From positions 124,001 through 188,000 of the forward strand of contig NZ_FODT01000009.1 of NCBI RefSeq assembly GCF_900110435.1: a stretch of DNA of 64,000 bases, in the 5' to 3' direction. The notes under the pieces are model-generated. The model saw nothing but the letters and a program-made list of their open reading frames with translations, was not told the origin of the DNA and ran no database searches. This document shows positions 13,111 to 43,779 of this stretch, piece after piece (positions within the stretch are counted from its first letter, which is position 1; every line of letters starts with the position of its first letter). Origin of the DNA: Rhodopseudomonas pseudopalustris. GTDB lineage: Bacteria; Pseudomonadota; Alphaproteobacteria; Rhizobiales; Xanthobacteraceae. Made by a program: the position numbers and the translations under genes.

Positions 13111-13130
13111 GGTGATCATGCATGATCACC
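13111..13130 (+). promoter_or_regulatory. 20-bp perfect palindrome over the start of the HTH gene
   Basis: GGTGATCATGCATGATCACC is a perfect 20-bp palindrome. It begins within the GGAGG ribosome binding site and contains the ATG at 13122. It could be an autoregulatory operator or, as RNA, could limit access to the start codon. Confidence 0.5.
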
Positions 13131-13385
13131 GCCCGACTGTCGCGGGCCGCACGCGCGCTGCTGGGTTGGACACAGGAGACGCTCGCTGACGAAGCCCGTG
13201 TATCACTGACCGCGCTCAAGCGCCTCGAGTCGGAGAGCGACTTGAAGGTCTACGAGAGCACACGCGATCAGGTGCGCCGGGCATTTGAAGCGCATGGCAT
13301 CGTCCTCTTGCAGTCCGACCAAGGTGAAGGGGTGATGCTCGTCCATGGCCGAAAAGCCGCCAGCGACATGCGGAAGAGAAACTAG
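13122..13385 (+). CDS. XRE-type helix-turn-helix regulator (87 aa)
   Basis: This is a one-domain DNA-binding protein. The helix-turn-helix covers about residues 5-45 (LSRAARALLGWTQETLADEA, then VSLTALKRLE), followed by a short C-terminal segment with HGIVLLQSD. Similar proteins are common as element repressors. It lies directly before the QseM-like and FseA-like genes, so by position it may play the part that QseC plays in ICEMlSym(R7A); that is an inference from context and fold, not sequence identity. A palindrome covers its start codon and a second inverted repeat lies upstream, which suggests autoregulation. Confidence 0.8.
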   Translation: MITARLSRAARALLGWTQETLADEARVSLTALKRLESESDLKVYESTRDQVRRAFEAHGIVLLQSDQGEGVMLVHGRKAASDMRKRN

Positions 13386-13505: not shown

Positions 13506-13772
13506 GTGACCAAGGCAGACTTCCTCGAACGGCCGCCGGAGAGCGCGTCGATCACCGACTATGATCGGGCGCACATGACGCTCTACCTCCGTCTCCTTGA
13601 TGCCGCGTCGGACGGCGCTGCTTGGGAAGAGGCCGTGTCAATCCTGTTCGGCATTGACCCGGCCGCCGAACCGGAGCGGGCCCGCCGCATCCATGACAGC
13701 CATCTCGATCGTGCCAAATGGATGACCCAGCACGGCTACCGCGAGCTTGTACACGAGCACCCGCGTCGTTGA
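13506..13772 (+). CDS. Single-domain DUF2285 protein, QseM-like antiactivator candidate
   Basis: The protein has 88 residues and begins with GTG at 13506. Nearly all of it matches the DUF2285 pattern: YDRAHMTLYLRLLDAASDGA, then AVSILFGID, then SHLDRAKWMTQHGYREL. DUF2285 is a helix-turn-helix variant. In ICEMlSym(R7A) the lone DUF2285 protein QseM binds and blocks the activator FseA. Here the lone DUF2285 gene ends 115 bp before an FseA-like gene, so the same antagonism is a reasonable prediction. The start is uncertain, because no strong Shine-Dalgarno sequence is seen. Confidence 0.7.
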   Translation: MTKADFLERPPESASITDYDRAHMTLYLRLLDAASDGAAWEEAVSILFGIDPAAEPERARRIHDSHLDRAKWMTQHGYRELVHEHPRR

Positions 13773-13887
13773 GGCGGGGGTGATGCCGCAGCGGCATCGC
13801 CCGTTTCCATTTCTCCGGCTTCCGCTTGCGCTTGCGTGGCGGAATCCTGCGCAGCGAAGCTGCTGCAGGTTTGCTGGCGGAGGATTC

Positions 13888-14662
13888 ATGACCCCCGACA
13901 TCTCGCACTGGCGATCATCCGAGCACTACGAATACGTCGAAGGCCTCGTCTCGCCCGAACTCGCTTGGGAATGGCTGCGCCGGAATGGAGACTATCAGCG
14001 CGACTTCGAGGCCGCTCAGCTGGAACCGAACGCCGACACCGCAGCAACCGAGGCGACGAGGTCTCGATGGGGGCTGCGATTTCCTGTTGTCGCCGGCCCT
14101 CGACGCCAAAGAGGCCGCGCCCATCTGGGCACCCACCGTGAACACTGGCGTCGTACTACTGACCGCACCGCCCGCCATCCTGCCGAAGGACGACACGTCA
14201 CAATACATTGACGCGCAGGCGCCCGGCCAATCAGACGCGCAAGGCTCCCACTTCGTCCACACCCTCACGAATGGCGAACGGCTTCAGATCCTGCGTCTCG
14301 GCGGATTAGGCGCAGACGAAGGCACGGCGGCCGTCATCCCGCTCGGCCCCGAAGGCTTCGATCGGCTCGAGGCCGTAGCCCGTCTCCTGAGTTCGCTCCA
14401 TGGCCGCTCGATTCCTGCCGACACGCGGCTGACCAAGCAGCAGCGTCAACGTGCGCGACGGATGTTGCAGGCCGTGGACGGGCGTCTCAGCGGCGCCAGC
14501 TACCGCGAGATCGCGGCGGCACTGTTCGGCGCAAGCGACCTCGCCGATGAACCATGGAAAACATCCTCGCGCCGGTTCGCGACCATGGACCTTGTGCGCG
14601 GCGGCCTCGCCATGATCGCCGGCGGCTATCGACGCCTCCTGAGCCATCGCCGTCGACGCTAG
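13888..14662 (+). CDS. fseA: FseA-like transfer activator (DUF6499-DUF2285), needs a +1 frameshift
   Basis: Two frames are needed. The upstream frame starts at ATG 13888 (MTPDISHWRSSEHYEYVEGL) and carries the DUF6499 domain (AWEWLRRNGDYQRDFEA) up to RWGLRF at 14082. The downstream frame, one base ahead, continues LLSPALDAKEAAPIWAP and carries a DUF2285 domain from about 14440 to 14650 (RARRMLQAVDGRLSGASYRE, then GGYRRLL), ending at 14662. Joined at CGA-TTT-C the product is 257 residues and reads as one uninterrupted family member. In ICEMlSym(R7A) the activator FseA is made by programmed +1 frameshifting between two such frames and switches on rdfS and transfer. The alternative is a plain frameshift mutation. 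The next gene is rdfS-like, as expected. Confidence 0.75.
14077..14086 (+). other. Probable +1 programmed ribosomal frameshift site
   Basis: The zero-frame codons are CGA at 14077 and TTT at 14080, followed by C. A Phe tRNA reading UUU can re-pair with UUC one base ahead, after which CTG at 14084 continues the downstream frame. The zero frame stays open until a stop at 14209-14211, so no stop codon sits at the slip point itself. Confidence 0.6.
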
Positions 14663-14787
14663 CACGCCTGGTGTGGGGATTTGCTCCCGCCAGCTTCCCA
14701 CTCCCTCCGCAACTTCGCGGTCCGCCAGGGTAGCCGCCAACCGCCGCTGTCCCCCTGCGGCTCTCGCGCAACCTCGGAGGCCCGATC

Positions 14788-15069
14788 ATGTCACCCAATG
14801 GCGCCGGCGTGCCGCAACGCTTTCTCCGCACGCCTGAAGCGGCCCGCTTCCTCGGTCTCTCGGATCGCACGCTCGAGAAGCACCGGACCTACGGCACCGG
14901 TCCCGCCTATCGCAAGCTTGGCGGGCGCGTCGTCTACGCGCTCGAGGACCTGAAAGCCTGGGCTGACCGCGGGTTTGTCACCTCGACGTCCGATCCGCGC
15001 GGGAGTGTCCTTCCCGCCAAGCGCCATGCCGCCGTCACGCCTGCCTTCGGCGGCGGCCAAGCCCGCTGA
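14788..15069 (+). CDS. rdfS: Excisionase-like HTH protein, RdfS-type
   Basis: The 93 residues start at ATG 14788, with CTCGGAGG just upstream. The core RFLRTPEAARFLGLSDRTLE, KHRTYGTGPAYRKLGGR and VVYALEDLKAW is a MerR-like HTH_17 domain, as in excisionases and recombination directionality factors. Its place directly after an FseA-like activator gene and at the head of a repA-parA-traF operon matches rdfS in ICEMlSym(R7A), whose product promotes excision by binding the attachment region. A second HTH_17 protein lies beside the integrase (40285), so which one directs excision needs testing. The 125-bp gap upstream should hold the activated promoter. Confidence 0.75.
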   Translation: MSPNGAGVPQRFLRTPEAARFLGLSDRTLEKHRTYGTGPAYRKLGGRVVYALEDLKAWADRGFVTSTSDPRGSVLPAKRHAAVTPAFGGGQAR

Positions 15070-15079
15070 GCCGTCCGAC

Positions 15080-16141
15080 ATGTCCCCACGGCAGCGCCCC
15101 CTCTCCTTGAGCGAACGATCGCGGCTCGACCCGTTCGTCGTCGCCACCGGCGACGCCAGTCCGCGCGACCAGCGCGATCTGATGGAGCGGCCCTTCTTCT
15201 CGCTCGCCAAGGCCAAGCGTACTTCACCGATCCACTACGAAGCCGGCGACATCCGCGTCGAAGTCTTCGCGGTCCCCGAGCATGGCATGGCGACCATCTG
15301 GGATGCCGATATCCTGATCTGGGCCGCGAGCCAGATCGTCGAGGCCGCAAACCTCGGCTTCCAAACCTCACGCTTCCTGCGCTTCACGCCGTATCAACTC
15401 CTGACCGCGATCGGGCGCCAGACGGGATCGCGCGACTATCGGCTCCTCAAGGGCGCTCTGGCGCGCCTTCAGTCGACGGTCATCCGCACCACGATCCGCA
15501 ACGGCGAGCATTGGCGGCGTCAGCAATTCTCCTGGATCAACGAGTGGGGGGAATGCACGACGCGCGACGGCCGCGTAGAGGGCATGGAGTTCGTCCTGCC
15601 CGACTGGCTCTATCGCGGTGTCATTGACCGCTCGCTCGTCCTCGCCATCGATCCCGCCTATTTCCGACTGACCGGCGGCATCGAGCGCTGGCTCTACCGG
15701 GTCGCCCGGAAGCATGCCGGCCGTCAGCCAGCGGGCTGGACCTTCGAAATCGCGCACCTGCACGCCAAATCGGGCAGCCAGGCGCGTGTTTCCGACTTCG
15801 CCATCGACATCCGCCGCATCGTCGCCCGCCAGCCGCTGCCCGGCTATCGCTTGGCTCTGGAGCGCACCGGTCGTCAAGAACGCCTGCACATCCGCCCCAT
15901 CAACTTGTCCACAGGCCCTGTGGATGGTGTTGTGGATGCGATCGGGACTTCGGGCGCAAATGGTATCGGGATTTCGGGCGTTGCCGGCTCGGGACTTCGG
16001 GCGCGGAAATCGCAACTAACCCTCTGGCCTGAAACGGCGATTCCGAGCCTTAACTTAGAATCTAACAACGAATCTAACTTCTTGTTGGAGCGGGGCGACG
16101 GTGGAAAACCACCCCGCTGCCGACGGAGCGCGCGGTCATGA
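15080..16141 (+). CDS. repA: Replication initiator protein A (RPA family)
   Basis: The protein has 353 residues from ATG 15080 (MSPRQRPLSLSERSR). It matches the alphaproteobacterial plasmid RepA family: FFSLAKAKRTSPIHYEAGD, then MATIWDADILIWAASQI, then FTPYQLLTAIGRQTG, and a winged-helix-like WLYRVARKHAGRQPAGW. It would start replication of the excised circle. It lies 10 bp after the rdfS-like gene and overlaps parA by 4 bp (ATGA). The last 80 codons overlap a cluster of DnaA-box-like sites and direct repeats, so the gene probably contains its own origin. Confidence 0.85.
   Translation: MSPRQRPLSLSERSRLDPFVVATGDASPRDQRDLMERPFFSLAKAKRTSPIHYEAGDIRVEVFAVPEHGMATIWDADILIWAASQIVEAANLGFQTSRFLRFTPYQLLTAIGRQTGSRDYRLLKGALARLQSTVIRTTIRNGEHWRRQQFSWINEWGECTTRDGRVEGMEFVLPDWLYRGVIDRSLVLAIDPAYFRLTGGIERWLYRVARKHAGRQPAGWTFEIAHLHAKSGSQARVSDFAIDIRRIVARQPLPGYRLALERTGRQERLHIRPINLSTGPVDGVVDAIGTSGANGIGISGVAGSGLRARKSQLTLWPETAIPSLNLESNNESNFLLERGDGGKPPRCRRSARS
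15905..16078 (+). other. Candidate replication origin inside the 3' end of repA
   Basis: In order are seen: TTGTCCACA at 15905-15913, one base from the DnaA box TTATCCACA, and two TGTGGAT half-sites at 15919 and 15931. Then come three direct repeats of TCGGGAYTTCGGGCG at 15942, 15966 and 15989, spaced 24 and 23 bp. Last is a visibly more AT-rich stretch with two copies of GAATCTAAC at 16058 and 16070. This is the layout of an iteron-type origin. Confidence 0.5.
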
Positions 16142-16776
16142 TCGTCGCGTTGCTCAATCAGAAAGGCGGCGTCGGCAAAACGACGCTCGCTCTCCATCTC
16201 GCCGGCGAATGGGCCAGCCGCGATCAACGCGTCATGCTCATCGATGCCGATCCGCAGGGTTCCGCACTCGACTGGTCCCAAGCTCGCGCCCGTGAAGGCC
16301 TGCCTCGCCGGTTCGCCGTCATCGGACTGGCGCGCGACACCTTGCACCGCGAAGCGCCCGAACTGGCGCGCGGCGCCGATCATGTGGTGATCGATGGTCC
16401 CCCGCGGGTCGCCGGCCTCATGCGCTCAGCCCTGCTCGCCGCCGATCTCGTCCTCATCCCGGTTCAGCCGTCGCCCTTCGACGGATGGGCGTCAGCCGAG
16501 ATGCTGGCACTGCTCCGCGAAGCACGCCTGTTCCGCCCGTCGCTTGTCGCCCGGTTCGTGCTCAACCGCTGCGGCGCGCGCACCATCATCGCACGCGAGA
16601 CCGCGAAGGCGCTCGCCGAACACGATCCGCCGGTGCTGGCGAGCGCGATAGGCCAACGCGTTGGCTTCGCGGATGCCGCGCAATCCGGCCGCCTGATCTC
16701 GGAGCTCGATGGCCAGCGTGCCGGCACGCGCGAGATCGCAGCGCTTTGCGCCGAAGTTGGAAGGCTCGCACCATGA
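16138..16776 (+). CDS. parA: ParA family partition ATPase
   Basis: The protein has 212 residues. It has a deviant Walker A motif at residues 8-16 (QKGGVGKTT), the switch motif LIDADPQGSA at about 36 and the VIDGPPRV Walker B-like segment at about 84. The short form without an N-terminal HTH is typical of plasmid and ICE ParA. It would spread over DNA in an ATP-dependent way and help the excised element to be inherited. It overlaps repA by 4 bp and the next gene by 4 bp, so all belong to one operon. Confidence 0.9.
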   Translation: MIVALLNQKGGVGKTTLALHLAGEWASRDQRVMLIDADPQGSALDWSQARAREGLPRRFAVIGLARDTLHREAPELARGADHVVIDGPPRVAGLMRSALLAADLVLIPVQPSPFDGWASAEMLALLREARLFRPSLVARFVLNRCGARTIIARETAKALAEHDPPVLASAIGQRVGFADAAQSGRLISELDGQRAGTREIAALCAEVGRLAP

Positions 16777-17012: not shown

Positions 17013-17524
17013 GCGCACCGGCAATTCATGGTGCAGCAGGCGTTCGGCCGTCATCACCTCCCGGTCGGCTCACCGAGGTCGAACTGGTTTGGCGCGAGAA
17101 GCAGATCGAGCACTGGATCCGCTTCGGCCATGCGGTCCACGAGCAAATCCTCGACCGACGGCGCCGCGTCCTCAGCTTCCCCGCCGGGGCTGTCTTCGCC
17201 TTCGTCCGCTGGGCATCGAATGGCTTTGGCACCGTCGTCTCGCGCATCGACATCCTGCGCGCCGTCAGCGCGGGCGACGGCTATCAGACGCTACCCTCGG
17301 TGCGGCCCGGTGGTGAAATCCTGCTGCAAACGAGCGGCTGGCCGAGCGTCGAGCAGGTGCTGCTTCTGATCGACGCGATCGAAGCGCTCGACATCGATCC
17401 CGCCGAAGCTGCGCCTGACTATTGGCGCCATGTCCATAACCGGCTCGCCGCCGGGGACGCCCCGCGATCCTACTCCCGACAGCAGCATCGCGCTTGGCAC
17501 TTGCGACAGAGGGCCGAGCCATGA
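17009..17524 (+). CDS. DUF2840 domain protein
   Basis: The protein has 171 residues. The DUF2840 family signature covers most of it: LTEVELVWREKQIEHWIRFG, then VFAFVRWASNGFGTVVSRID and LDIDPAEAAPDYWRHVHNRL. Family members are found almost only in the rdfS-traF operon of alphaproteobacterial conjugative elements; no activity is known. It overlaps its neighbours by 4 bp at each end, which argues for tight coupling with parA and traF. Confidence 0.88.
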   Translation: MSAPAIHGAAGVRPSSPPGRLTEVELVWREKQIEHWIRFGHAVHEQILDRRRRVLSFPAGAVFAFVRWASNGFGTVVSRIDILRAVSAGDGYQTLPSVRPGGEILLQTSGWPSVEQVLLLIDAIEALDIDPAEAAPDYWRHVHNRLAAGDAPRSYSRQQHRAWHLRQRAEP

Positions 17525-18066
17525 CGCGCGCCGGCTACCTGCTGACGGCCACTGGCGCCGCGCTCCTGCTGATCACGCTGGCGATGGTGCACGTTGCACC
17601 GCGGCTCGTCTGGAACGCATCGGCCAGCGTCCCGGTCGGCCTCTATGAGATCGGCTCGGCTACGCCGCTCGAGGTCACCGACCTTGTCGCGGTCAATGCG
17701 CCGGAGCCGCTTGCCGCATTCCTCGCGGACCGGGGTTATCTGCCGCGCGGCGTACCGCTCTTGAAGCGCGTTGCCGCACTTCCCGGGCAGACAGTCTGCC
17801 GTTCGGAAGGGGACATTAGCGTCGACGGGATCACCGTCGGCAATGCGCTCGACCGCGACCGTCTGGGACGCACGCTGCCTATCTGGAGAGGCTGCCACCG
17901 GATCGGCGCGAGCGAACTCTTCCTCATGAACATCGGCGTCCGGGACAGCCTGGACGGCCGCTACTTCGGGCCTCTCGCCGTCACCACCGTGATCGGCCGG
18001 GCCACGCCTCTCTACACCGACGAAGACGGCGATGGTCGCTTCGTCTGGCGCGCGCCGACGCGGTGA
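17521..18066 (+). CDS. traF: TraF, S26 family signal peptidase of conjugation
   Basis: The protein has 181 residues from ATG 17521, which overlaps the DUF2840 stop. There is one N-terminal membrane segment (GYLLTATGAALLLITLAMV). The S26 motif SVPVGLY at about residue 40 holds the candidate catalytic Ser, and PLLKRVAALPGQ at about 79-90 holds the Lys. TraF is the periplasmic maturation protease that in RP4 cyclises the TrbC pilin; trbC is present here at 30380. The protein is close to the usual length. I rejected an upstream start at 17494 because it is not supported by spacing. Confidence 0.9.
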   Translation: MTRAGYLLTATGAALLLITLAMVHVAPRLVWNASASVPVGLYEIGSATPLEVTDLVAVNAPEPLAAFLADRGYLPRGVPLLKRVAALPGQTVCRSEGDISVDGITVGNALDRDRLGRTLPIWRGCHRIGASELFLMNIGVRDSLDGRYFGPLAVTTVIGRATPLYTDEDGDGRFVWRAPTR

Positions 18067-18453: not shown

Positions 18454-19218
18454 ATGCGCGTCTCCCATCGCCAGCCCGCTGCCGGAGCGAAAGGGGCCGC
18501 CCGCCGATTCCCCTTCATTCTCCTTTCCGGCCTGGCCTTTGCCGGCGCGATGCCCGCGCCGTCTCTGGCGCAGACCTCGCTCATCGAGCGACCCGCTGCA
18601 GGCTCGCCCTACACACAAGCGGTCGCCGAGGCAGCGCAGCGGTTCGGCATTCCCGAGCGCTGGATCTGGGCAGTCATGCGCGTCGAGAGCGGCGGTCGTG
18701 TCCGCGCGGTCTCGCCCAAAGGCGCGATGGGACTCATGCAGATCATGCCCGCGACCTGGGCGGATCTGCGGGCGCGCCACGGTCTGGGGGCCGATCCCTT
18801 TGACCCTCGCGACAACATCCTCGCTGGCGCAGCCTATCTGCGCGAAATGCACGACCGCTACGGCGCGCCGGGCTTTCTCGCGGCCTACAATGCCGGCCCC
18901 GGGCGGTACGATGACTATCTCTCGGCTGGCCGCGCGCTGCCCGCCGAGACCATCGCCTACGTGGCCGCGATCGCGCCGTTGATCGGCAGTGAGCCGCTCG
19001 CTGCCGGCGTCGCTGTCGCGACCATCGACCCGCTCGCGTGGACTCGGTCTCCGTTGTTCGTCGCGCGCTCCGAAGGCAGCGTTGCAGCAGAACGATCGCA
19101 GCCCGATCGCCAAAGGAACGGCAGCCGAACCGCAGATCCGCAGCAACCCCCAATTGCCGGTTCGACGCAGACGGCAGGCATCTTCGTGACCCGCGCCGAT
19201 GATGGGGGGCGTCCATGA
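18454..19218 (+). CDS. Lytic transglycosylase (SLT family), VirB1-like
   Basis: The protein has 254 residues. A signal peptide covers about residues 20-46 (FPFILLSGLAFAGAMPAPSL, then AQ). The SLT domain starts at about residue 60, with the catalytic Glu in WAVMRVESGGRVRAVSPKGA followed by MGLMQIMPATW, and it closes with FLAAYNAGPGRYDDYL. It would cut peptidoglycan to let the transfer apparatus through, as VirB1 and TrbN do. The C-terminal 80 residues are unstructured and Pro/Gln-rich. It starts 3 bp after DUF736, and the stop leads into the oriT-like region. Confidence 0.9.
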   Translation: MRVSHRQPAAGAKGAARRFPFILLSGLAFAGAMPAPSLAQTSLIERPAAGSPYTQAVAEAAQRFGIPERWIWAVMRVESGGRVRAVSPKGAMGLMQIMPATWADLRARHGLGADPFDPRDNILAGAAYLREMHDRYGAPGFLAAYNAGPGRYDDYLSAGRALPAETIAYVAAIAPLIGSEPLAAGVAVATIDPLAWTRSPLFVARSEGSVAAERSQPDRQRNGSRTADPQQPPIAGSTQTAGIFVTRADDGGRP

Positions 19219-19337
19219 CCGGAATCGCACTCCGGCGCGGTGTAGCGAGCTCCCGGAAAGAGGCGGCACGGGGCCGTTGGGGCGAAGCAGACACGACCAA
19301 CAGATGGCGAGATAAAAGCGGCTCGCCACTCGCGTGC

Positions 19338-19436
19338 AAGCCATTGCTTTCGCATGGCTTTTCACGTGCCGGTCGGTCGGGGGCAGTGCCGGTTCCGGCT
19401 ATTTTCCACGATATTTCAAGGACATTGCCGGCACTG
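19338..19436 (+). other. Candidate origin of transfer (oriT)
   Basis: This stretch between the transglycosylase and relaxase genes has two inverted repeats. AAGCCAT (19338) pairs with ATGGCTT (19354), and CAGTGCCGG (19384-19392) pairs perfectly with CCGGCACTG (19428-19436) across an AT-richer centre (ATTTTCCACGATATTTC). Inverted repeats beside the relaxase gene are the usual mark of oriT. In ICEMlSym(R7A), oriT likewise lies upstream of rlxS. Confidence 0.5.
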
Positions 19437-19465
19437 TCCCGCGTTTGGCCCGCCGGAGGCCGGCG

Positions 19466-21229
19466 ATGAGCGACGGCGACAGCGACTTCCGGGTCCGGCC
19501 AGGCCGCATCGGTTCGACGCGGGCGCCGAAACCCAAGAGCTTCATCAACCAAGTCCTGCGCGCCGCCAAGCGCTCGGGGCATGTCGGCACCGGCGGCGGT
19601 CCGGGCCGCAAGGCGTCCGGCTATGGCCGTTCGAGCTTCGGGCGCGGACGGATCGCCTTCAGCCGCGCGCGGCTTTTCAGCTCGTCGCGCCGCGTCGTCG
19701 TCAAGGCGCGGATCGCCCGCCACCAGGGCCGGGCCTTCCGGTCTGCGCCGCTTAATGCCCACCTCTCTTATCTCAAGCGCGACGGCGTCACGCGCGACGG
19801 TGAGAAGGCCGTGATGTTCGATGCCGACAGCGACCGCGCCGATGACGCTGGTTTCGCCGCGCGCTCGAAGGACGACCGCCACCATTTCCGCTTCATCATC
19901 TCGCCCGAGGACGCCGCCGAGTTGACGGACCTGCGCGCCTTCACGCGCGACCTCGCGCGCCAAATGGAAGCCGACCTCGGGACCCGGCTCGATTGGGTTG
20001 CGGTCGATCACTGGAACACCGACAATCCCCACGTCCACCTGCTGGTGCGAGGCGTTGACGCCCAGGGCACCGACCTCGTCATCTCACGCGACTACATCAG
20101 CCGCGGCTTGCGATCCCGGGCCGAGGATCTTGTGTCGATCGAACTCGGCCCGAAGCCGGAGCACGAGATCAAGACGGCGCTCGAGCGCGAAATCACGGCC
20201 GAGCGCTGGACGCGCCTCGATGTCGAGATTCGCATCGCCGCCGACGAGACCGGCTTCATCGATCTTCGTCCCGAGCAATCCGGCGCCACTGATCCCCAGA
20301 CCCGCCGGCTCATGATCGGGCGGCTCCAGCACCTAGAGAAGATGGGCCTCGCGTCATCCGCCAGCCCCGGCGAGTGGATGGTCGGGCTCGACGCCGAACG
20401 CAATTTGCGCGACCTCGGGCTTCGCGGGGACATCATCAAGACCATGCACCGCGCCTTCGCCGAGCGCGGTGAGGATCGCGCTGTCGCCGACTATGTCATC
20501 GAAGGCGGCAGCGGACAGGCGCCGATCATCGGGCGGCTGGTCGATCGCGGCCTGCACGACGAGCTGACGGGCGAAGCCTATGCGGTGATCGACGGCACCG
20601 ACGGCCGCGCCCACCATGTCCGGTTCCGCGGTGTCGAGGCCTTCGAGCATGCGCCTGCGATCGGCGGCATCGTGGAGGTTCGGCGCTTTGGCCGAGCCGA
20701 TGAGGCGCGCCCGACGCTTGTTCTCGCCCACCGGTCAGACCTCGAACTCGGCCAGCAGATCAAGGCGCCGGGGGCCACCTGGCTGGACCATCGGCTTGTG
20801 GAGGCGGACCCCATGCCGCTGTCGATGGGAGGCTTCGGGCGAGAGGTGCGCGAAGCCCTGCAGGCACGGGCCGAGCATCTCGCCGACCAAGGCCTCGGTC
20901 GACGCCAAGGCCAGCGGATCATCCTGCAACGCGACCTCCTCGCCACGCTGCGGCGGCGCGAACTGGATGCGGTCGGGGCGCGCCTCTCCGCCGAGACCGG
21001 CCTTGCGCACATGAAGCAGACCGCCGGTGATCAGGTCGCGGGCATCTATCGCCAGCGTCTCGACCTCTCCTCCGGCCGGTTCGCGATGATCGACAACGGT
21101 CTCGGCTTCCAGCTCGTGCCCTGGTCCCGCGAGATCGAACGCAAGCTCGGCCAGCATGTCGCCGGCGCCGTGAAGGATGGCGGCGGCATCGAATGGGGCC
21201 TCGGCCGCAAGCGTGGGCTCGCCCTCTAG
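19466..21229 (+). CDS. rlxS: RlxS-type relaxase (VirD2-like, DUF3363)
   Basis: The protein has 587 residues from ATG 19466, with GGAGG 8-12 bases upstream. The N-terminal region is basic. The nuclease domain includes APLNAHLSYLKRDGVTRDGE at about residue 95 and the metal-binding His motif DNPHVHLLVRG at about 184-194. The C-terminal half is the DUF3363 region (GMGSASP-like linker, then GQAPIIGRLVDRGLHDELTG). It should nick oriT and pilot the transferred strand to TraG. An upstream in-frame start at 19334 would read through the oriT repeats and lacks relaxase similarity. Confidence 0.9.
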   Translation: MSDGDSDFRVRPGRIGSTRAPKPKSFINQVLRAAKRSGHVGTGGGPGRKASGYGRSSFGRGRIAFSRARLFSSSRRVVVKARIARHQGRAFRSAPLNAHLSYLKRDGVTRDGEKAVMFDADSDRADDAGFAARSKDDRHHFRFIISPEDAAELTDLRAFTRDLARQMEADLGTRLDWVAVDHWNTDNPHVHLLVRGVDAQGTDLVISRDYISRGLRSRAEDLVSIELGPKPEHEIKTALEREITAERWTRLDVEIRIAADETGFIDLRPEQSGATDPQTRRLMIGRLQHLEKMGLASSASPGEWMVGLDAERNLRDLGLRGDIIKTMHRAFAERGEDRAVADYVIEGGSGQAPIIGRLVDRGLHDELTGEAYAVIDGTDGRAHHVRFRGVEAFEHAPAIGGIVEVRRFGRADEARPTLVLAHRSDLELGQQIKAPGATWLDHRLVEADPMPLSMGGFGREVREALQARAEHLADQGLGRRQGQRIILQRDLLATLRRRELDAVGARLSAETGLAHMKQTAGDQVAGIYRQRLDLSSGRFAMIDNGLGFQLVPWSREIERKLGQHVAGAVKDGGGIEWGLGRKRGLAL

Positions 21230-21256: not shown

Positions 21257-23245
21257 ATGTCTGCGACGAAAATCCTCTGGGGCCAGATCACCACCGTGTT
21301 CCTCATCGTGCTGCTCACGACCTGGGGCGCGACCCAATGGACCGCCTGGCGGCTCGGTTTTCAGGCGCAGCTCGGCACGCCGTGGTTCGAGCTGGCGGGT
21401 TGGCCGGTCTACTATCCACCCGCCTTCTTCTGGTGGTGGTACTTCTACGACGCCTATGCCCCGCCGATCTTTGTTGAAGGCGCTATGATCGCCGCCTCAG
21501 GCGGCTTCATCTCCATCGCCGTCGCCATCGCAATGTCGGTATGGCGCGCCCGTGAGGCGAAGAATGTCGAGACCTACGGCTCGGCCCGCTGGGCTGAAAT
21601 CCGGGAGGTGAAGGCGGCAGGACTGCTCGGACCCGATGGCGTCGTCCTCGGAAAGCTAGGCGACGCCTATCTCCGACATGATGGACCCGAGCATGTCCTG
21701 TGCTTCGCACCAACCCGATCGGGCAAGGGTGTCGGTCTCGTTGTCCCGACGCTCCTCACCTGGCCGGGCTCCGCCATCGTCCACGATATCAAGGGCGAGA
21801 ACTGGCAGCTGACCGCCGGCTTCCGCGCGAGGCACGGCCGCGTCCTGCTGTTCGATCCCACCAACGCCAAGTCGGCCGCCTACAATCCGCTCCTGGAAGT
21901 GCGACGGGGAGAGTGGGTAGTTCGCGACGTGCAAAACGTCGCCGACGTTCTCGTCGACCCCGAGGGCTCACTCGACAAGCGCAATCACTGGGAGAAGACG
22001 AGCCATTCTTTGCTCGTCGGTGCCATCCTGCATGTGCTGTACGCGGAAGAGGAGAAGACGCTCGCCGGTGTAGCCGCCTTCCTGTCGGATCCGCGCCGTC
22101 CGATCGAAGCCACGCTGAAGGCGATGATGACGACGCCCCATCTCGGCCTTGGCGGCCCTCATCCCGTCGTGGCGTCGACAGCGCGCGAACTCCTCAACAA
22201 GAGCGACAACGAGCGCTCGGGCGTCCTGTCCACCGCCATGTCCTTCCTGGGCCTCTACCGCGATCCGGTGGTGGCGGAGGTGACGCGCCGCTGCGACTGG
22301 CGGATCGCCGACCTCATCGCCGATGAGAAGCCAGCAACGCTCTACCTTGTGGTTCCGCCATCCGACATCTCCCGGACGAAGCCGTTGATCCGGCTCGTGC
22401 TCAACCAGATCGGCCGACGCCTGACCGAGGATCTGCATGCGCGAGACCGGCGGCATCGTGTGCTGATGATGCTCGACGAGTTTCCAGCTCTCGGCCGCCT
22501 CGACTTCTTTGAGAGCGCGCTCGCCTTCATGGCGGGCTACGGCCTGAAGTCGTTCCTCATAGCCCAGTCATTGAACCAGATCGAAAAGGCCTATGGCCCG
22601 AACAATGCGATCCTCGACAACTGCCATGTGCGCGTGAGCTTCGCCACCAATGACGAGCGCACCGCCAAGCGCGTGAGCGACGCCCTCGGTACGGCGACCG
22701 AGATGAAGGCGATGCGGAACTATGCCGGGCATCGGCTCAGCCCCTGGCTCGGTCATCTGATGGTCTCGCGCTCGGAGACGGCGCGGCCGCTCCTTACCCC
22801 TGGCGAGGTGATGCAGCTACCGGCGACGGATGAAATCGTGATGGCCGCCGGTGTCCATCCCATCCGAGCCAAGAAGGCCCGTTACTTCGAGGATCGCCGC
22901 TTCAAGGAGCGCATCCTGCCGTCACCCGACCCGGCGAAATGCGGGCGTTCGGCCCGAAGGGACGCCTGGTCCGAGTTGAAACCGCAGCGGCCCGACGCAT
23001 TGCTCGCGGCTGAGCTCGACAAGGCGGAAGACGCTGCCAATGGCGGTCTGCGGCGCGAGCCCGAACTGCCCGACCATGTCGCGATCGCCAAGGAGACGAC
23101 CGGACCTGCCGCGGCCGACGAGTTTTCCATCATGCTGGACGATGAGCCGGAAGACGCGGCGCGGCAGCGTCAGGCGCTGCGCCAGCAGATGCGCGGCGTG
23201 GCGAGACAGGTCGCGCTCGATCCCAATGACGGCATCGAACTGTGA
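21257..23245 (+). CDS. traG: TraG/VirD4 coupling protein
   Basis: The protein has 662 residues. Two membrane segments lie in the first 95 residues (ILWGQITTVFLIVLLTTWGA, and FISIAVAIAMSVW). Walker A is at about 150-158 (PTRSGKGVGLVVP) and Walker B at about 401-408 (VLMMLDEFPALG). It couples the relaxase-DNA complex to the Trb channel. The gene begins 27 bp after the relaxase stop, with AAGGAA upstream. It ends 7 bp before the CopG gene. Confidence 0.95.
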   Translation: MSATKILWGQITTVFLIVLLTTWGATQWTAWRLGFQAQLGTPWFELAGWPVYYPPAFFWWWYFYDAYAPPIFVEGAMIAASGGFISIAVAIAMSVWRAREAKNVETYGSARWAEIREVKAAGLLGPDGVVLGKLGDAYLRHDGPEHVLCFAPTRSGKGVGLVVPTLLTWPGSAIVHDIKGENWQLTAGFRARHGRVLLFDPTNAKSAAYNPLLEVRRGEWVVRDVQNVADVLVDPEGSLDKRNHWEKTSHSLLVGAILHVLYAEEEKTLAGVAAFLSDPRRPIEATLKAMMTTPHLGLGGPHPVVASTARELLNKSDNERSGVLSTAMSFLGLYRDPVVAEVTRRCDWRIADLIADEKPATLYLVVPPSDISRTKPLIRLVLNQIGRRLTEDLHARDRRHRVLMMLDEFPALGRLDFFESALAFMAGYGLKSFLIAQSLNQIEKAYGPNNAILDNCHVRVSFATNDERTAKRVSDALGTATEMKAMRNYAGHRLSPWLGHLMVSRSETARPLLTPGEVMQLPATDEIVMAAGVHPIRAKKARYFEDRRFKERILPSPDPAKCGRSARRDAWSELKPQRPDALLAAELDKAEDAANGGLRREPELPDHVAIAKETTGPAAADEFSIMLDDEPEDAARQRQALRQQMRGVARQVALDPNDGIEL

Positions 23246-30993: not shown

Positions 30994-31002
30994 GGCGTGG
31001 CC

Positions 31003-33441
31003 ATGATGAACCTCGCCGAATATCGCCGAACCGCGACCCGCCTTGCAGATTTCCTGCCCTGGGCGGCGCTGGTCGGCGAAGGGGTCGTGCTGAACAAGGA
31101 CGGCAGCTTCCAGCGCACCGCGCGCTTTCGTGGTCCCGATCTCGACTCTGCTGTGGCCGCCGAACTGGTGGCAGTCGCCAGTCGCCTCAACAACGCCTTC
31201 CGGCGTCTGGGCTCGGGCTGGGCGATCTTCGTCGAAGCGCAGCGCCACGAAGCCGCCTCCTATCCGGCAAGCCGCTTCGCGGACGCCGCCTCCGCCCTCG
31301 TTGATGCGGAGCGCAAGGCCGACTTCGAGGAAGCGGACGCGCATTACGAGTCGAGCTACTTCTTGACCTTTCTCTATCTCCCGCCTGCCGAGGACGCCGC
31401 GCGGGCGGAAACCTGGCTCTACGAGGGTCGCCAACAGTCCGGCGTCGATCCCCATGAAGCCCTCGCGGCCTTCATTGACCGCACAAACCGCGTCCTCCAG
31501 CTCGTCGATGGCTTCATGCCGGAATGCCGGTGGCTCGATGACGCCGAGACCCTGACTTACCTGCACTCGACCGTCTCGACGAAGCGCCACCGCGTCCGCG
31601 TGCCCGAAACGCCGATCTACCTCGATGCGCTTCTCGCCGTTGAGCCGTTGACCGGCGGCCTCGAGCCACGGCTCGGCGCCGCTCATCTGCGCGTGCTGAC
31701 GATCAACGGCTTTCCGACGGCGACGACGCCAGGGATTCTCGACGATCTCAACCGGCTCGCCTTTCCCTATCGCTGGTCCACGCGGGCGATCCTCCTCGAC
31801 AAGACGGACGCCACGAAACTGCTGACGCGCATCCGGCGGCAGTGGTTCGCCAAGCGCAAGTCGATCGCCGCAATCCTGAAGGAGGTAATGACCAACGAGG
31901 CCTCCGCACTCGTCGATACGGACGCTGCGAACAAGGCCGCCGATGCCGACATGGCCCTGCAGGAGCTTGGGGCCGACTATGCCGGTCAGGCCTATGTGAC
32001 CGCCACGGTCACAGTCTGGGACGCCGATCCGCGCACCGCCGACGAGAAGTTGCGCCTCGTGGAAAAGGTGATCCAGGGCCGCGACTTCACCGCGATGTCC
32101 GAGACCATCAATGCCGTCGATGCCTGGCTCGGTTCGCTGCCCGGCCATGTCTACGCCAACGTCCGCCAGCCACCGATCTCCACTCTAAACCTCGCCCACA
32201 TGATTCCGCTCTCGGCGGTCTGGGCCGGGCCGGAACGGGACGAGCATTTCGGAGCGCCGCCGCTGCTGTACGGCAAGACCGAAGGGAGCACGCCGTTCCG
32301 CTTTTCGCTGCATGTCGGCGACGTCGGCCACACACTGGTCGTCGGGCCGACAGGCGCGGGCAAGTCCGTGCTGCTCGCGCTCATCGCACTTCAGTTCCGG
32401 CGCTATCCGGGCAGCCAAGTCTTCGCCTTCGACTTCGGCGGCTCCATTCGCGCGGCCGCGCTCGCCATGGGAGGCGATTGGCACGACCTCGGTGGCAGCC
32501 TGACGGACGGCGCCGCGTCGTCGGTCTCCCTCCAGCCACTCGCACGCGTTCACGAGACCCATGAGCGTGCCTGGGCAGCCGACTGGATTGCCGCCATCCT
32601 TGCCCGCGAGAGCGTCACGATCACGCCGGAAGTGAAAGAACATCTCTGGACGGCGCTGACCTCGCTGGCGTCCGCGCCGATCACAGAGCGCACGCTGACG
32701 GGCCTCGCCGTCCTCCTCCAGTCGAACGATCTCAAGCAAGCGCTGCGCCCCTTTTGCGTCGGCGGTGCCTACGGACGGCTGCTGGACGCCGAAGGCGAGC
32801 AGCTAGGGGAAGCTGCGGTCCAGGCCTTTGAAACCGAGGGGCTGATCGGCGGCGGCGCGGCGCCGGCGGTCCTCGCCTATCTCTTCCATCGGATCGGCGA
32901 CCGTCTGGATGGACGGCCCACGCTCCTGATCGTCGACGAAGGCTGGCTCGCGCTCGACGATGAAGGCTTCGCGGCGCAACTGCGCGAATGGCTGAAGACG
33001 CTGCGCAAGAAGAACGCGTCGGTCGTCTTCGCCACGCAATCGCTGGCCGACATCGATGGGAGCGCGATCGCTCCGGCCATCATCGAAAGCTGCCAGACGC
33101 GCCTTTTGCTGCCGAACGAACGCGCGATCGAACCCCAGATCACCACGATCTACCGGCGCTTCGGCTTGAACGACCGCCAGATCGAGATCCTCAGCCGGGC
33201 CACACCCAAGCGCGACTATTACTGCCAGTCGCGGCGCGGCAACCGGCTGTTCGAGTTGGGGCTCTCCGAAGTCGCCCTCGCGCTCTGCGCGGCATCCTCG
33301 AAAACTGATCAGGCCGCCATCGAGGCGATCCTCGCCGAGCATGGCCGCGACGGCTTCCTGTCCGCCTGGCTGCGCGCCCGCGATGTCGGATGGGCCGCCG
33401 ACCTCATTCCCGATCTCACCAACCTGGAGCCCAAGCCATGA
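31003..33441 (+). CDS. trbE: TrbE, VirB4-like conjugation ATPase
   Basis: The protein has 812 residues from ATG 31003 (MMNLAEYRRTATRLADFLPW). GTG 30997 in the same frame is also possible. Walker A is at about 446-454 (VGPTGAGKSVLLALI) and Walker B at about 638-646 (TLLIVDEGWLAL). VirB4 proteins are the largest ATPases of the channel and dock substrates at the inner membrane. It overlaps trbJ by 4 bp. The length is normal for the family. Confidence 0.95.
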   Translation: MMNLAEYRRTATRLADFLPWAALVGEGVVLNKDGSFQRTARFRGPDLDSAVAAELVAVASRLNNAFRRLGSGWAIFVEAQRHEAASYPASRFADAASALVDAERKADFEEADAHYESSYFLTFLYLPPAEDAARAETWLYEGRQQSGVDPHEALAAFIDRTNRVLQLVDGFMPECRWLDDAETLTYLHSTVSTKRHRVRVPETPIYLDALLAVEPLTGGLEPRLGAAHLRVLTINGFPTATTPGILDDLNRLAFPYRWSTRAILLDKTDATKLLTRIRRQWFAKRKSIAAILKEVMTNEASALVDTDAANKAADADMALQELGADYAGQAYVTATVTVWDADPRTADEKLRLVEKVIQGRDFTAMSETINAVDAWLGSLPGHVYANVRQPPISTLNLAHMIPLSAVWAGPERDEHFGAPPLLYGKTEGSTPFRFSLHVGDVGHTLVVGPTGAGKSVLLALIALQFRRYPGSQVFAFDFGGSIRAAALAMGGDWHDLGGSLTDGAASSVSLQPLARVHETHERAWAADWIAAILARESVTITPEVKEHLWTALTSLASAPITERTLTGLAVLLQSNDLKQALRPFCVGGAYGRLLDAEGEQLGEAAVQAFETEGLIGGGAAPAVLAYLFHRIGDRLDGRPTLLIVDEGWLALDDEGFAAQLREWLKTLRKKNASVVFATQSLADIDGSAIAPAIIESCQTRLLLPNERAIEPQITTIYRRFGLNDRQIEILSRATPKRDYYCQSRRGNRLFELGLSEVALALCAASSKTDQAAIEAILAEHGRDGFLSAWLRARDVGWAADLIPDLTNLEPKP

Positions 33442-34199
33442 TGATCCGACGCTCTCGCGCGGCGCTGTTCGCCGCAACCATCCTGTCGCTGCCCGTCGCC
33501 TTCTCGCCCGTGTTCGTGACCCCGGCAGCGGCGCAGTGGGTCGTTTATGATCCGACCAACTACGTCCAGAATGTCCTATCGGCCGCGCGGGCGCTCGAGC
33601 AGATCAACAACCAGATCCAGAGCCTCCAGAACGAAGCGCAGATGCTGATCAACCAGGCCCGCAATCTCGCGAGCCTGCCCTATTCCTCGCTTCAGCAGCT
33701 CCAGCAATCGGTGCAGCGCACGCAAGCGCTTCTGGGTCAGGCACAGCGCATCGCCTTCGACGTGCAGCAGATCGACCAAGCCTTTCAGAGCCAGTACAGC
33801 AACATCTCGCTGTCCACTTCGGATCAGCGTCTCGTCTCCGATGCACGATCGCGCTGGCAGAACACGGTCGGCGGCCTTCAGGACGCGCTGCGCGTGCAGG
33901 CCGGTGTCGTCGGCAATATCGACACCAACCGCGCCGAGATGGCGGCTCTGGTCGGGCAGAGCCAGGGTGCGACCGGCGCGCTTCAGGCAACCCAGGCCGG
34001 CAACCAGTTGCTCGCATTGCAGGCGCAGCAACTCGCAGACCTGGTCGCTGTGGTCGCTGCGAACGGCCGAGCGCAGGCGCTTGTCGATGCCGAGCGAGCC
34101 GCAGCCGCCGAACAAGGCCGTGAACAGCGCCGCCGGTTCTTGACGCCCGGCTCCGGCTATCAGCCCGGCAACGCCCGGATGTTCCCGAACGGCAACTGA
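33438..34199 (+). CDS. trbJ: TrbJ, VirB5-like transfer protein
   Basis: The protein has 253 residues from ATG 33438. A signal peptide (AALFAATILSLPVAFSPVFV, then TPAAAQW) is followed by a long, Gln-rich coiled-coil domain (LEQINNQIQSLQNEAQMLIN). TrbJ is the periplasmic, pilus-tip-associated protein of this system. It overlaps trbE by 4 bp and is followed by trbK 10 bp downstream. Confidence 0.92.
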   Translation: MMIRRSRAALFAATILSLPVAFSPVFVTPAAAQWVVYDPTNYVQNVLSAARALEQINNQIQSLQNEAQMLINQARNLASLPYSSLQQLQQSVQRTQALLGQAQRIAFDVQQIDQAFQSQYSNISLSTSDQRLVSDARSRWQNTVGGLQDALRVQAGVVGNIDTNRAEMAALVGQSQGATGALQATQAGNQLLALQAQQLADLVAVVAANGRAQALVDAERAAAAEQGREQRRRFLTPGSGYQPGNARMFPNGN

Positions 34200-34209
34200 G
34201 GACAGCAGG

Positions 34210-34491
34210 ATGGACGGCAAGACGCTGGCCCGCCTGGGCGCAATCATCTTCGTCTCCGTCGCGATCACGGCAACGGCGATCGAGATGACCCGGAAAGAGG
34301 AAAGGCCAGCGGCTCGGCCGACGCCCGTGCTTGAGGAGGCGCCGGACCCGCTGCGCGAGGGCCAGCGTCGGTGCCAGCAGATGGGGGAAGCCGCCGCAAG
34401 GGACGGCGAGTGTCTGCGCATCTGGGCCGAAACCCGCGACCGTTTCCTTGGCACCCGCACCGCGCCGCGACGCGCCGACGAAGGGCGGTGA
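34210..34491 (+). CDS. trbK: TrbK-alt, putative entry exclusion protein
   Basis: The protein has 93 residues, with one N-terminal membrane segment (LARLGAIIFVSVAITATAI) and a Cys-containing tail (RRCQQMGEAAARDGECLRIW) that marks the TrbK-alt type. TrbK in RP4 is a lipoprotein that blocks entry of a second copy, but this form lacks a lipobox and exclusion has not been shown for it. It lies between trbJ and trbL in the usual place. Confidence 0.85.
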   Translation: MDGKTLARLGAIIFVSVAITATAIEMTRKEERPAARPTPVLEEAPDPLREGQRRCQQMGEAAARDGECLRIWAETRDRFLGTRTAPRRADEGR

Positions 34492-34494
34492 GCC

Positions 34495-35844
34495 ATGGGC
34501 GGCAGCGGCGTCATCGACAATTTCCTCGGGGTCTTCACCTCCTACATCGACAGCGGATTCGGCCTGCTCGGCGGCGAGGTGGCGTTCATCGCGACGACGC
34601 TGATCGTCATCGACGTCACGCTGGCCGCCCTGTTCTGGAGCTGGGGCGCGGACGGCGACATCATCGCACGCCTTGTGAAGAAGACGCTGTTTGTGGGCGT
34701 CTTCGCCTACATCATCGGCAACTGGAACAACCTCGCGCGGATCGTCTTCGAAAGCTTCGCCGGCCTCGGACTTCAGGCGTCTGGCACCGGGTTTTCCATC
34801 CAGGACCTGATGCGCCCGGGCCGGGTCGCGCAGACGGGTCTCGATGCGGCGAGGCCGCTGCTCGAATCCATCTCAAACCTGATGGGCTGGATCGCCTTCT
34901 TCGAAAACTTCATCCAGATCGCCTGCCTGCTCTTCGCCTGGGCGCTGGTGCTGCTCGCCTTCTTCATCCTCGCCATCCAGCTCTTCATCACGCTGATCGA
35001 ATTCAAGCTGACCACCCTGGCCGGCTTTGTCCTGATCCCGTTCGGCCTGTTCGGGAAGACCGCCTTCATGGCCGAGCGCGTGCTGGGAAACGTCATCTCG
35101 TCAGGGATCAAGGTACTGGTGCTCGCCGTCATCATCGGCATCGGCTCGACTCTGTTCAGTCAGTTCACGGCAGGATTCGGCGGTCAGCCACCGACCATCG
35201 ACGACGCGATGGCCGTCGTATTGGCGGCGCTGTCGCTTCTCGGTCTCGGCATATTCGGTCCGGGTATCGCCAACGGCATCGTTTCCGGCGGCCCGCAACT
35301 CGGCGCAGGCTCCGCCATCGGCACCGGCCTCGTCGCGGGCGGCGCAGCCATGGCTGCCGGCGGCGCGGCCGGGCTCGCCCTGCGCGGTGGCGCGAGCGCC
35401 ATTTCCGGCGGCGCCGCCGCCATGCGCGGTGGAGCCACCGCGGCGGGAGCCGCCTCTGCTGCCTACAGTCTCGGTTCCCTCGGCCAGTCGGGCGCTGCCG
35501 GCGTCGCGTCGGGCCTCGGCGGCGTCGCACGAGCGGCCGGCGGCGCGGCAGCCTCTCCGCTGCGCCGGGCCGCGCAAAGCGTTCGCTCGAGCTTCGCCGA
35601 CGGCGTCAAAAGCGGCTTCGGAGCCACCGGCGGTTCCTCGAGCATGGGAACGGTCGCGAATGATGCCGGTTCGGCCGCACCGGCAGCCACAGGCTCTGCC
35701 GCCAGCCCGCCGGCTTGGGCGCAGCGCATGCGACGTGGGCAGACCATGAGCCACGGCGTCACGCTCGCGGCACACGCGATCCGATCGGGCGACAGCCACG
35801 GCGGCGGCTCTTCCATCAATCTCTCCGGAGGCGACCGCACATGA
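34495..35844 (+). CDS. trbL: TrbL, VirB6-like polytopic membrane protein
   Basis: The protein has 449 residues. About six to eight membrane segments lie in the first 290 residues, including IACLLFAWALVLLAFFILAI. A long, flexible Gly/Ala/Ser-rich C terminus follows (GGAAMAAGGAAGLALRGGAS and similar stretches). This is the TrbL layout, forming the inner-membrane channel. It overlaps trbF by 4 bp. Confidence 0.93.
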   Translation: MGGSGVIDNFLGVFTSYIDSGFGLLGGEVAFIATTLIVIDVTLAALFWSWGADGDIIARLVKKTLFVGVFAYIIGNWNNLARIVFESFAGLGLQASGTGFSIQDLMRPGRVAQTGLDAARPLLESISNLMGWIAFFENFIQIACLLFAWALVLLAFFILAIQLFITLIEFKLTTLAGFVLIPFGLFGKTAFMAERVLGNVISSGIKVLVLAVIIGIGSTLFSQFTAGFGGQPPTIDDAMAVVLAALSLLGLGIFGPGIANGIVSGGPQLGAGSAIGTGLVAGGAAMAAGGAAGLALRGGASAISGGAAAMRGGATAAGAASAAYSLGSLGQSGAAGVASGLGGVARAAGGAAASPLRRAAQSVRSSFADGVKSGFGATGGSSSMGTVANDAGSAAPAATGSAASPPAWAQRMRRGQTMSHGVTLAAHAIRSGDSHGGGSSINLSGGDRT

Positions 35845-36530
35845 GCTTCTTCAAGCGACCCGCAACCCACTATGGAAAGACGCCCGGGCCCGAGACGCCG
35901 TATCAGCGCGCGGCGCAGATCTGGGATGATCGAATCGGCTCAGCGCGTGTCCAGGCCCGAAACTGGCGGCTCATGGCCTTCGGCTGCCTGATCCTCTCCG
36001 CCGGCTTCGCTGCCGCGCTGGTCTGGCAGTCGGCGCGCGGGACCATCGTCCCGTGGGTGGTGCAGGTCGACAATCTCGGCCAGGCGCAGGCGGTCGCGCC
36101 AGCGCAGGCCGACTACCGCCCCACCGACCCGCAGGTGGCCTGGCATCTGGCGCGGTTCATCGAGCAGGTCCGCTCGATCCCGGCCGACGCCATCGTCGTG
36201 CGGCAGAATTGGCTGCGCGCCTACGAGTTCACGACCGATCGCGGCGCGGCGGCCCTCAATGACTTCGCCCGCGCCAACGATCCGTTCACCCGCGTCGGGA
36301 AGCAGCAGGTGTCGATCGAAGTGTCGAGCGTTATCCGCGCGTCGCCTGACAGCTTCCGCGTCGCCTGGACCGAACGCCAATACGAGAACGGCCAGCTCTC
36401 CACGACACAACGCTGGACAGCCATCCTGACCATCGTGATCCAACCCCCACGCGACGCAGAGCGGCTGCGGGCCAATCCGCTCGGAATCTACGTCAACGCC
36501 ATCAACTGGTCTCGGGAGATGGGGCAATGA
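35841..36530 (+). CDS. trbF: TrbF, VirB8-like assembly protein
   Basis: The protein has 229 residues from ATG 35841 (MSFFKRPATHYGKTP). One membrane segment lies near residues 35-55 (LMAFGCLILSAGFAAALVW), followed by a VirB8 periplasmic domain (VQVDNLGQAQAVAPAQADYR, then WTAILTIVIQPP). It nucleates channel assembly at the inner membrane. It overlaps trbL and trbG by 4 bp each. Confidence 0.93.
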   Translation: MSFFKRPATHYGKTPGPETPYQRAAQIWDDRIGSARVQARNWRLMAFGCLILSAGFAAALVWQSARGTIVPWVVQVDNLGQAQAVAPAQADYRPTDPQVAWHLARFIEQVRSIPADAIVVRQNWLRAYEFTTDRGAAALNDFARANDPFTRVGKQQVSIEVSSVIRASPDSFRVAWTERQYENGQLSTTQRWTAILTIVIQPPRDAERLRANPLGIYVNAINWSREMGQ

Positions 36531-40284: not shown

Positions 40285-40560
40285 ATGGGTCAGAGCGAGC
40301 CTTTGGAGATCAGGAAGACCATCCGGCGGCACCAACTGCGCGAGATGGTGCCCCTGGCTGACAGCACAATCTACGAGATGGAGCAGCGCGGCGAATTCCC
40401 ACGCCGCTTCGCGCTGTCGCCGCGCTGCATCGTCTGGGACCTCGCCGAGGTCCACGCCTGGTTGCTGGCGCGGCGCGCGAAGCCAATCCCTCGCGCACAG
40501 CATCCCGATGTCACCAAGCGCAAGTCCCGCCCAGTCAAAGGGCAGGATCGAGCGCGATAG
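40285..40560 (+). CDS. AlpA family HTH protein (excisionase/regulator)
   Basis: The protein has 91 residues from ATG 40285, with GAGGAG 9-14 bases upstream. The HTH_17 core is RRHQLREMVPLADSTIYEME followed by RGEFPRRFAL and VWDLAEVHAWLL, typical of AlpA. AlpA proteins beside an integrase usually regulate it or act as its directionality factor. Its 3' end overlaps that of the integrase gene by 26 bp on the opposite strand. Confidence 0.85.
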   Translation: MGQSEPLEIRKTIRRHQLREMVPLADSTIYEMEQRGEFPRRFALSPRCIVWDLAEVHAWLLARRAKPIPRAQHPDVTKRKSRPVKGQDRAR

Positions 40561-41791: not shown

Positions 41792-41808
41792 TCTGGGCCT
41801 CCTCGCGG

Positions 41809-41921: not shown

Positions 41922-42074
41922 CGATTTTCCGGATGATCAACGGGGGCAGGGTCCGTCAGCGGGCACGACAGACGCGTTTGATGCCCACCGATAGCTCTCG
42001 ATAGGTCTCGGCTGAAATATTTTTGTTTTTCAGGTGGTTACGTCGTATTCTGGCGTAGTTTCGGATAGCCTCGG

Positions 42075-43693: not shown

Positions 43694-43779
43694 GGGCAGC
43701 AGATACGCGACCGCAGCCCGGCTCGCAACCGGGAAAAACAGGCGCAGCGGCCGACATCCATTGCCAGCCTCGTTCACCC

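What the first reader, a model, noticed from the sequence alone, without database searches (positions are those of the whole stretch)
13888..14662. FseA-like transfer activator split by a probable +1 programmed frameshift
Seen: DUF6499 sequence in one frame up to RWGLRF, and DUF2285 sequence one base ahead from LLSPALDA, overlapping at CGA-TTT-C. Known: in ICEMlSym(R7A), FseA is made from two such frames by programmed +1 frameshifting, so the activator level is set by translation. Inference: the same control operates here in a different host group, and the unusual feature is that no stop codon sits at the slip point.
Basis: partly seen in the sequence, partly recalled or inferred. Interest (0 to 1): 0.85.

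Follow-up and report, generated by a model that had tools for sequence, protein, structure and literature searches.

The report
Frameshifted switch for gene transfer
A mobile DNA element in a bacterium encodes its transfer activator in two overlapping reading frames that the ribosome must join by skipping one base, a control already described for this protein family, of which this is one more member.

Summary
DUF6499 (13888-14082) and DUF2285 (14084-14662) lie in frames offset by +1 and meet at TGG-GGG-CTG-CGA-TTT-C (14068-14083). The slip codons are held at nucleotide level: Phe is TTT in 154 of 154, against 26% elsewhere in the same genes. Neighbours complete the known circuit: a QseM homologue upstream (7uqt, 2.6e-21), an RdfS homologue downstream (8dgl, 8.1e-10). 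The mechanism is published for FseA; about 61% of 4709 homologues need it (PMC10359603). By-products: Azorhizobium caulinodans rihF1b/rihF1a, published as lacking a frameshift, carry the same slip site; and the unshifted product is a whole DUF6499 domain, which in R7A binds QseM: a possible decoy. Verdict: new member of a known kind.

The parts
13879..13883 (+). GGAGG ribosome-binding site of the 0-frame ORF
   Evidence: sequence by eye
13888..14211 (+). 0-frame ORF, 107 aa: DUF6499/PF20109 (residues 7-66) plus a 42-residue tail that is not part of FseA
   Evidence: tail length varies widely among relatives
14068..14073 (+). TGGGGG, Shine-Dalgarno-like run coding Trp-Gly, 6 nt upstream of the slip codon
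   Evidence: 116 of 161 distinct split loci have TGGGGG; called ribosome-binding-site-like in PMC10359603
14077..14079 (+). CGA, conserved rare Arg codon just before the slip codon
   Evidence: 102 of 123 Arg codons at this position against 9.6% elsewhere in the same genes
14080..14083 (+). slip site TTT-C; one base is skipped
   Evidence: TTTC in 151 of 161; one locus, L074, bounds the shift to W+10..W+20
14084..14662 (+). +1-frame part: middle region and DUF2285/PF10074 DNA-binding domain
13506..13772 (+). QseM-like lone DUF2285 protein (antiactivator candidate)
   Evidence: PDB 7uqt QseM 2.6e-21; PF10074 5.6e-7; net charge -4 against +11 for the FseA-like DUF2285
13122..13385 (+). HTH_3 protein in the place of a QseC-like regulator (relation to QseC not tested)
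   Evidence: PF01381 4.4e-5
14788..15069 (+). RdfS-like recombination directionality factor, the expected target gene
   Evidence: PDB 8dgl RdfS 8.1e-10; PF12728 7.4e-10
14975..16141 (+). RepA-type replication initiator (PF10134); start codon uncertain
   Evidence: 1.4e-83
16138..16776 (+). ParA-type ATPase
   Evidence: PF13614 6.7e-21
17494..18066 (+). S26 peptidase (TraF-like by position)
   Evidence: PF10502 3.6e-25
18454..19218 (+). lytic transglycosylase-like protein
   Evidence: best NCBIfam 7.4e-22, below cut-off
19334..21229 (+). RlxS-type relaxase
   Evidence: NF041267 3.6e-173, below its curated cut-off
21257..23245 (+). TraG coupling protein
   Evidence: NF010450 1236.5 bits, above its cut-off
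30997..38703 (+). Trb mating-pair genes (TrbE-type 30997, TrbL 34495, TrbG/CagX 36527, TrbI 37141)
40535..41791 (-). tyrosine integrase beside the 3' end of guaA (42086-43777, -)
   Evidence: PF00589 1.9e-21

Best explanation
This is an FseA-type transfer activator of an ICEMlSym-like integrative and conjugative element, made only when a ribosome shifts +1 at UUU-C (14080-14083). Shown here by comparison: two domains in two frames, one conserved slip point, nucleotide-level constraint at that point, and QseM and RdfS homologues on either side. Inferred: tRNA-Phe reads UUU with a wobble pair, moves one base on to UUC (a perfect pair), and translation continues in the +1 frame. The G-run 6 nt upstream and the rare CGA codon, which is in the E site when UUU is in the P site, would make the ribosome pause and loosen. 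Most ribosomes do not shift and make the DUF6499 fragment. The few that shift make FseA, which, by homology to R7A, turns on the adjacent rdfS-like gene and so excision and transfer, while the QseM-like protein holds it back.
For: +1 offset in 101 of 112, 77 of 77 and 23 of 35 N+C pairs. Bounds on the shift: the +1 frame opens only at W+10 in 6 loci, the 0-frame stop is at W+21 in 17; one locus, L074, has both, leaving 11 nt that hold TTT-C. Codon bias at the site against the rest of the same genes, 161 loci: Phe TTT 154/154 (26%), Arg CGA 102/123 (9.6%), Leu TTG or TTA 90/151 (10.7%), Gly GGG 116/154 (12.2%); in 108 cluster representatives 104/104, 65/77, 66/99, 70/101. The first base of the slip codon is T in 161 of 161; a shift one codon earlier would not need that. 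The three registered TTT-T loci can re-pair UUU to UUU. Neighbours match QseM and RdfS. Published: +1 frameshifting of msi172-msi171 makes FseA, and the site is conserved in homologues (PMC10359603, passages).
Against: No peptide, reporter or ribosome-profiling data here. Six split loci have TGT-C, where by pairing rules tRNA-Cys cannot re-pair. The G-run is 6 nt from the slip codon, not 3 as in prfB (PMC12421855), so the stimulation differs or the P-site codon is CGA. 59 of 161 loci lack CGA. Single-frame relatives can keep TTT-C (L240). No stable RNA structure follows the slip (z 0.24). The AlphaFold model is poor at the junction (residues 64-110 below pLDDT 50). The binomial P values treat related loci as independent.
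Confidence: 0.9

Rival explanations
1. Two separate proteins: the DUF2285 ORF starts on its own (ATG 13985, or a start after the slip) and the halves work in trans.
For: A 225-aa ORF can be called from ATG 13985. 66 of 161 split loci have some ATG/GTG/TTG in the open +1 frame before the slip, 31 of them an ATG. PMC9601964 argues for separate genes in Azorhizobium.
Against: ATG 13985 is the only +1-frame start before the slip in the window and by eye has no good Shine-Dalgarno sequence. 95 of 161 split loci have no start before the slip; the first start after it scatters from about 15 to 270 nt past the Trp codon and is absent in 4. Independent starts would not hold TTT, CGA and GGG codons. In Azorhizobium neither half alone restored transfer (PMC9601964).
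Confidence: 0.05
2. Pseudogene or assembly indel.
For: A few relatives do look damaged: L021 and L009 with a further frame break, L042 with a deletion, L241 with a stop inside the first frame.
Against: The same single +1 offset in 161 distinct loci (108 clusters) and third-position substitution bias in both halves.
Confidence: 0.02
3. The shift happens with CGA in the P site: a weak wobble pair lets the incoming tRNA-Phe read UUC instead of UUU, giving the same peptide.
For: CGA is strongly conserved and lies 3 nt from the G-run, the prfB spacing. Five of the six registered TGT-C loci keep CGA, the sixth has CGG.
Against: 57 loci with TTT use 19 codons other than CGA before it, while T stays the first base of the slip codon in 161 of 161, which this model does not need.
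Confidence: 0.2

Closest known systems
FseA (msi172-msi171) of ICEMlSym R7A, Mesorhizobium japonicum
   Same: DUF6499 + DUF2285 in two frames joined by a +1 shift; UGGGGG at WGL; QseM and RdfS partners; RdfS, TraF, RlxS, Trb genes (PMC10359603, PMC11963761, PMC5882170, passages)
   Different: Here qseM-like, fseA-like and rdfS-like genes lie side by side; no LuxR/LuxI-type hit on the element's contig, so the quorum input is missing or elsewhere; 257 against 266 residues. The R7A FseA sequence itself was not compared.
RihF1b/RihF1a of ICEAc, Azorhizobium caulinodans ORS571
   Same: Same two families, same +1 offset and TGG GGA CTT CGA TTT C (L044; L207)
   Different: Published as not frameshifted (PMC9601964)
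prfB (RF2) +1 frameshift
   Same: G-run and a pyrimidine slip codon, P-site tRNA moves +1
   Different: prfB has an in-frame stop as sensor and 3-nt spacing (PMC12421855); here no stop and 6 nt
RovC (PDB 6xz5)
   Same: First-ranked Foldseek match, 252 columns; DUF2285 part weakly matched by sequence, E 0.019
   Different: Single frame; Foldseek E 0.063, TM 0.34/0.40, so not significant by E-value

Membership tests
FseA-type activator | N-terminal DUF6499 with AWEFLRRN-like motif | tested here: met
   PF20109 3.4e-22; AWEWLRRN at residues 26-33
FseA-type activator | C-terminal DUF2285 with positively charged surface | tested here: inconclusive
   PF10074 9.2e-35; net charge +11 over 81 residues, but the surface was not computed
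FseA-type activator | +1 frameshift site between the domains (about 61% of homologues, PMC10359603) | tested here: met
   by comparison, not by measurement
FseA-type activator | activates rdfS through a 28-bp inverted-repeat box | tested here: inconclusive
   RdfS homologue directly downstream; only 6-nt inverted repeats in 14640-14800; the R7A box sequence was not at hand
FseA-type activator | held back by QseM binding to DUF6499 | not testable with these tools
   QseM homologue upstream; binding not tested
FseA-type activator | switched on by TraR and AHL (as in R7A) | tested here: not met
   no PF03472 or PF00765 hit on contig C15 (3 hits each, all on other contigs); a feature of R7A, not of the whole family
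prfB-type autoregulatory frameshift | in-frame stop in the A site at the slip | tested here: not met
   0-frame codon after TTT is CCT; 0 of 161 split relatives have a stop there

The most novel reading that the evidence does not exclude
The frameshift sets a ratio as well as a level. Each message yields many unshifted DUF6499 fragments, each a whole QseM-binding domain with a throw-away tail, and few full activators, so the fragments soak up the antiactivator QseM and sharpen a weak, noisy signal into a switch. Support: the slip lies just after the DUF6499 domain in the 161 split loci while the tail after it varies from 2 to over 200 codons. In R7A, FseA residues 1-85 bind QseM as strongly as whole FseA in two-hybrid assays (PMC10359603). 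A QseM-like gene lies upstream on the same strand in 140 of 161 split loci. Against: in one other family 5 of 7 single-frame relatives have a QseM-like neighbour too, and the fragment may be degraded.
Probability: 0.2. Interest if true: 0.55.

Novelty: new member of a known kind. Interest (0 to 1): 0.27.

Why it matters
It adds a clear member to a known translational switch for gene transfer and gives a counted slip-site consensus that annotators can use. It also suggests that a published statement of no frameshift in Azorhizobium ICEAc should be re-examined. The decoy idea would tie the frameshift to the antiactivator and could be tested in existing R7A reporter strains.

Tried and rejected
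A link between frameshifting and a QseM-like neighbour: not separable from ancestry. Single-frame relatives from other classes lack the neighbour in 13 of 13, but in one alphaproteobacterial family 5 of 7 single-frame relatives have it. An RNA structure after the slip: none (z 0.24). A guaA-end direct repeat marking the far end of the element: no shared 15-mer in the 80 kb searched. An FseA box upstream of the rdfS-like gene: only 6-nt inverted repeats. L244, a single-frame copy that fits loss of one G from the G-run, was set aside because its genome is one contig, 86% complete, and may hold indel errors. L188 was misregistered in the codon counts; its true site reads TTT TTT C. L009 was left out of the intersection of frames because its second frame has a further break. 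Rows dropped: L003-L005, duplicates, one N hit without C (L007), ten of 45 loci without an N+C pair. Of the 23 +1 pairs one (L241) has a stop inside its first frame.

Full report
What is there. At 13888 a well-started ORF (GGAGG, ATG) encodes a DUF6499 domain ending in RWGLRF. DUF2285 follows in the +1 frame, whose only start codon before the slip is ATG 13985, inside the first gene. Reading TTTC as one step gives one 257-residue protein with both Pfam domains.

Is it real. I used PF20109 to find relatives. Hits were in 67 of 198 genomes of the host family, 27 of 299 drawn from the phylum, 15 of 369 of another class, and 45 of 149 of another family of the class. I analysed the loci the tool delivered plus 60 more of the places listed; the other places were not fetched. 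Of 112 distinct N+C pairs, 101 were offset by +1, 10 were in one frame and 1 had another offset. Of the named loci, 80 minus three Brucella, 77 of 77 were +1; the tool kept the best 80 of 518, so this set leans to close relatives. Of 45 further loci 35 gave pairs, 23 +1 and 12 single-frame. The Trp-Gly site could be read in 12 single-frame pairs (5, 7); TTT-C stands at the slip codon in two of them (L240, and L042, which has a deletion) and one codon later in a third (L117). The own genome holds a second copy (L002), also split +1, with a 0-frame TGA three codons after the slip codon, a QseM-like gene upstream and an RdfS homologue downstream (4.9e-9).

Where it slips. Over 161 distinct split loci, the +1 frame opens as late as W+10 (6 loci) and the 0-frame stops as early as W+21 (17 loci); L074 shows both. 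So in that locus the shift falls within 11 nt containing TTT-C. The slip 4-mer is TTTC in 151, TGTC in 6, TTTT in 3, and one is misregistered. Codon bias there is strong compared with the same genes elsewhere, also in 108 cluster representatives. In seven other genes of the window TTT is 16 of 133 Phe, CGA 19 of 287 Arg and TTA 0 of 333 Leu.

Mechanism. UUU to UUC re-pairing by tRNA-Phe is the simplest reading, with the G-run and CGA as helpers. The E-site role of CGA and its weak pairing are my inference from recalled decoding rules. The 6-nt distance from the G-run and the TGT-C loci do not fit a simple prfB-like model and keep the CGA-in-the-P-site version alive.

Setting. Upstream lies a QseM homologue, downstream an RdfS homologue, then RepA-type, ParA-type, S26 peptidase, transglycosylase-like, RlxS-type, TraG and Trb genes, with an integrase beside guaA. 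No LuxR/LuxI-type family hit is on the contig. In R7A, FseA turns on rdfS and downstream traF, msi107 and rlxS (PMC11963761, passages); this gene order is compatible with that.

Host. The host itself is unnamed. One genome of its family (G013) has a contig of 5,369,772 bases, the published length of the Azorhizobium caulinodans ORS571 chromosome (PMC2443382, passages). By inference the host belongs to the order Hyphomicrobiales, as does Mesorhizobium.

Azorhizobium. In that genome the split pair (DUF6499 1.3e-21, DUF2285 2.8e-37) lies next to an integrase (PF00589 6.4e-11) where the 87.6-kb symbiosis region should end by its published start and length. The pair should therefore be rihF1b/rihF1a. 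The slip site is in frame with the first ORF, and the base after it is in frame with the second. PMC9601964 (passages) states that the frameshift is absent because each ORF has its own start and end, yet reports that neither half alone restores transfer. The conserved slip site argues that the frameshift is present. A full-text search for rihF1 found only that paper.

What is known. PMC10359603 (abstract and passages): FseA is made by a low-frequency +1 programmed frameshift; about 61% of 4709 homologues need it; the site is found in alpha-, beta- and gammaproteobacteria; UGGGGG is noted as ribosome-binding-site-like. The 2015 PNAS paper was not held, so its slip-site sequence was not seen. 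On the decoy idea: one search with QseM, antiactivat, frameshift, titrat and decoy listed 12 of 7,307 papers, none of which joins these ideas by title, term counts or start of abstract, and neither 'titrat' nor 'decoy' occurs in PMC10359603. Hence new member of a known kind.

Structure. An AlphaFold model from the read-through window protein and 44 N or C pieces of relatives has mean pLDDT 69.1. RovC is its first-ranked PDB match, not significant by E-value (0.063).

Noticed in passing
L207 2920-3688 (-); L044: Azorhizobium caulinodans ORS571 ICEAc rihF1b/rihF1a carries the conserved +1 slip site (L207 3493-3508, -) although published as lacking a frameshift.
   Followed up: yes
L002 (G000:C12:573734-577039): Second FseA-like pair in the own genome, also +1 split, with its own QseM-like gene upstream and RdfS homologue downstream.
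   Followed up: partly
window 23848-27553: AAA ATPase and S8 peptidase pair resembling the anti-phage IteA/IteS, probably element cargo (NF042959 4.1e-80, NF042956 4e-91, both under their cut-offs); HipA-like gene at 27584-28852.
   Followed up: no
L080, L082, L083, L086, L090, L092: Split loci with TGT-C in place of TTT-C, where tRNA-Cys cannot re-pair; a different slip route is needed.
   Followed up: partly
L244 (G843): Single-frame copy whose sequence fits loss of one G from the G-run of the slip site; natural escape or sequencing error.
   Followed up: no
window 40535-42110: Integrase beside the 3' end of guaA, also an ICE site in Mesorhizobium (PMC8627217); the far end was not found.
   Followed up: partly
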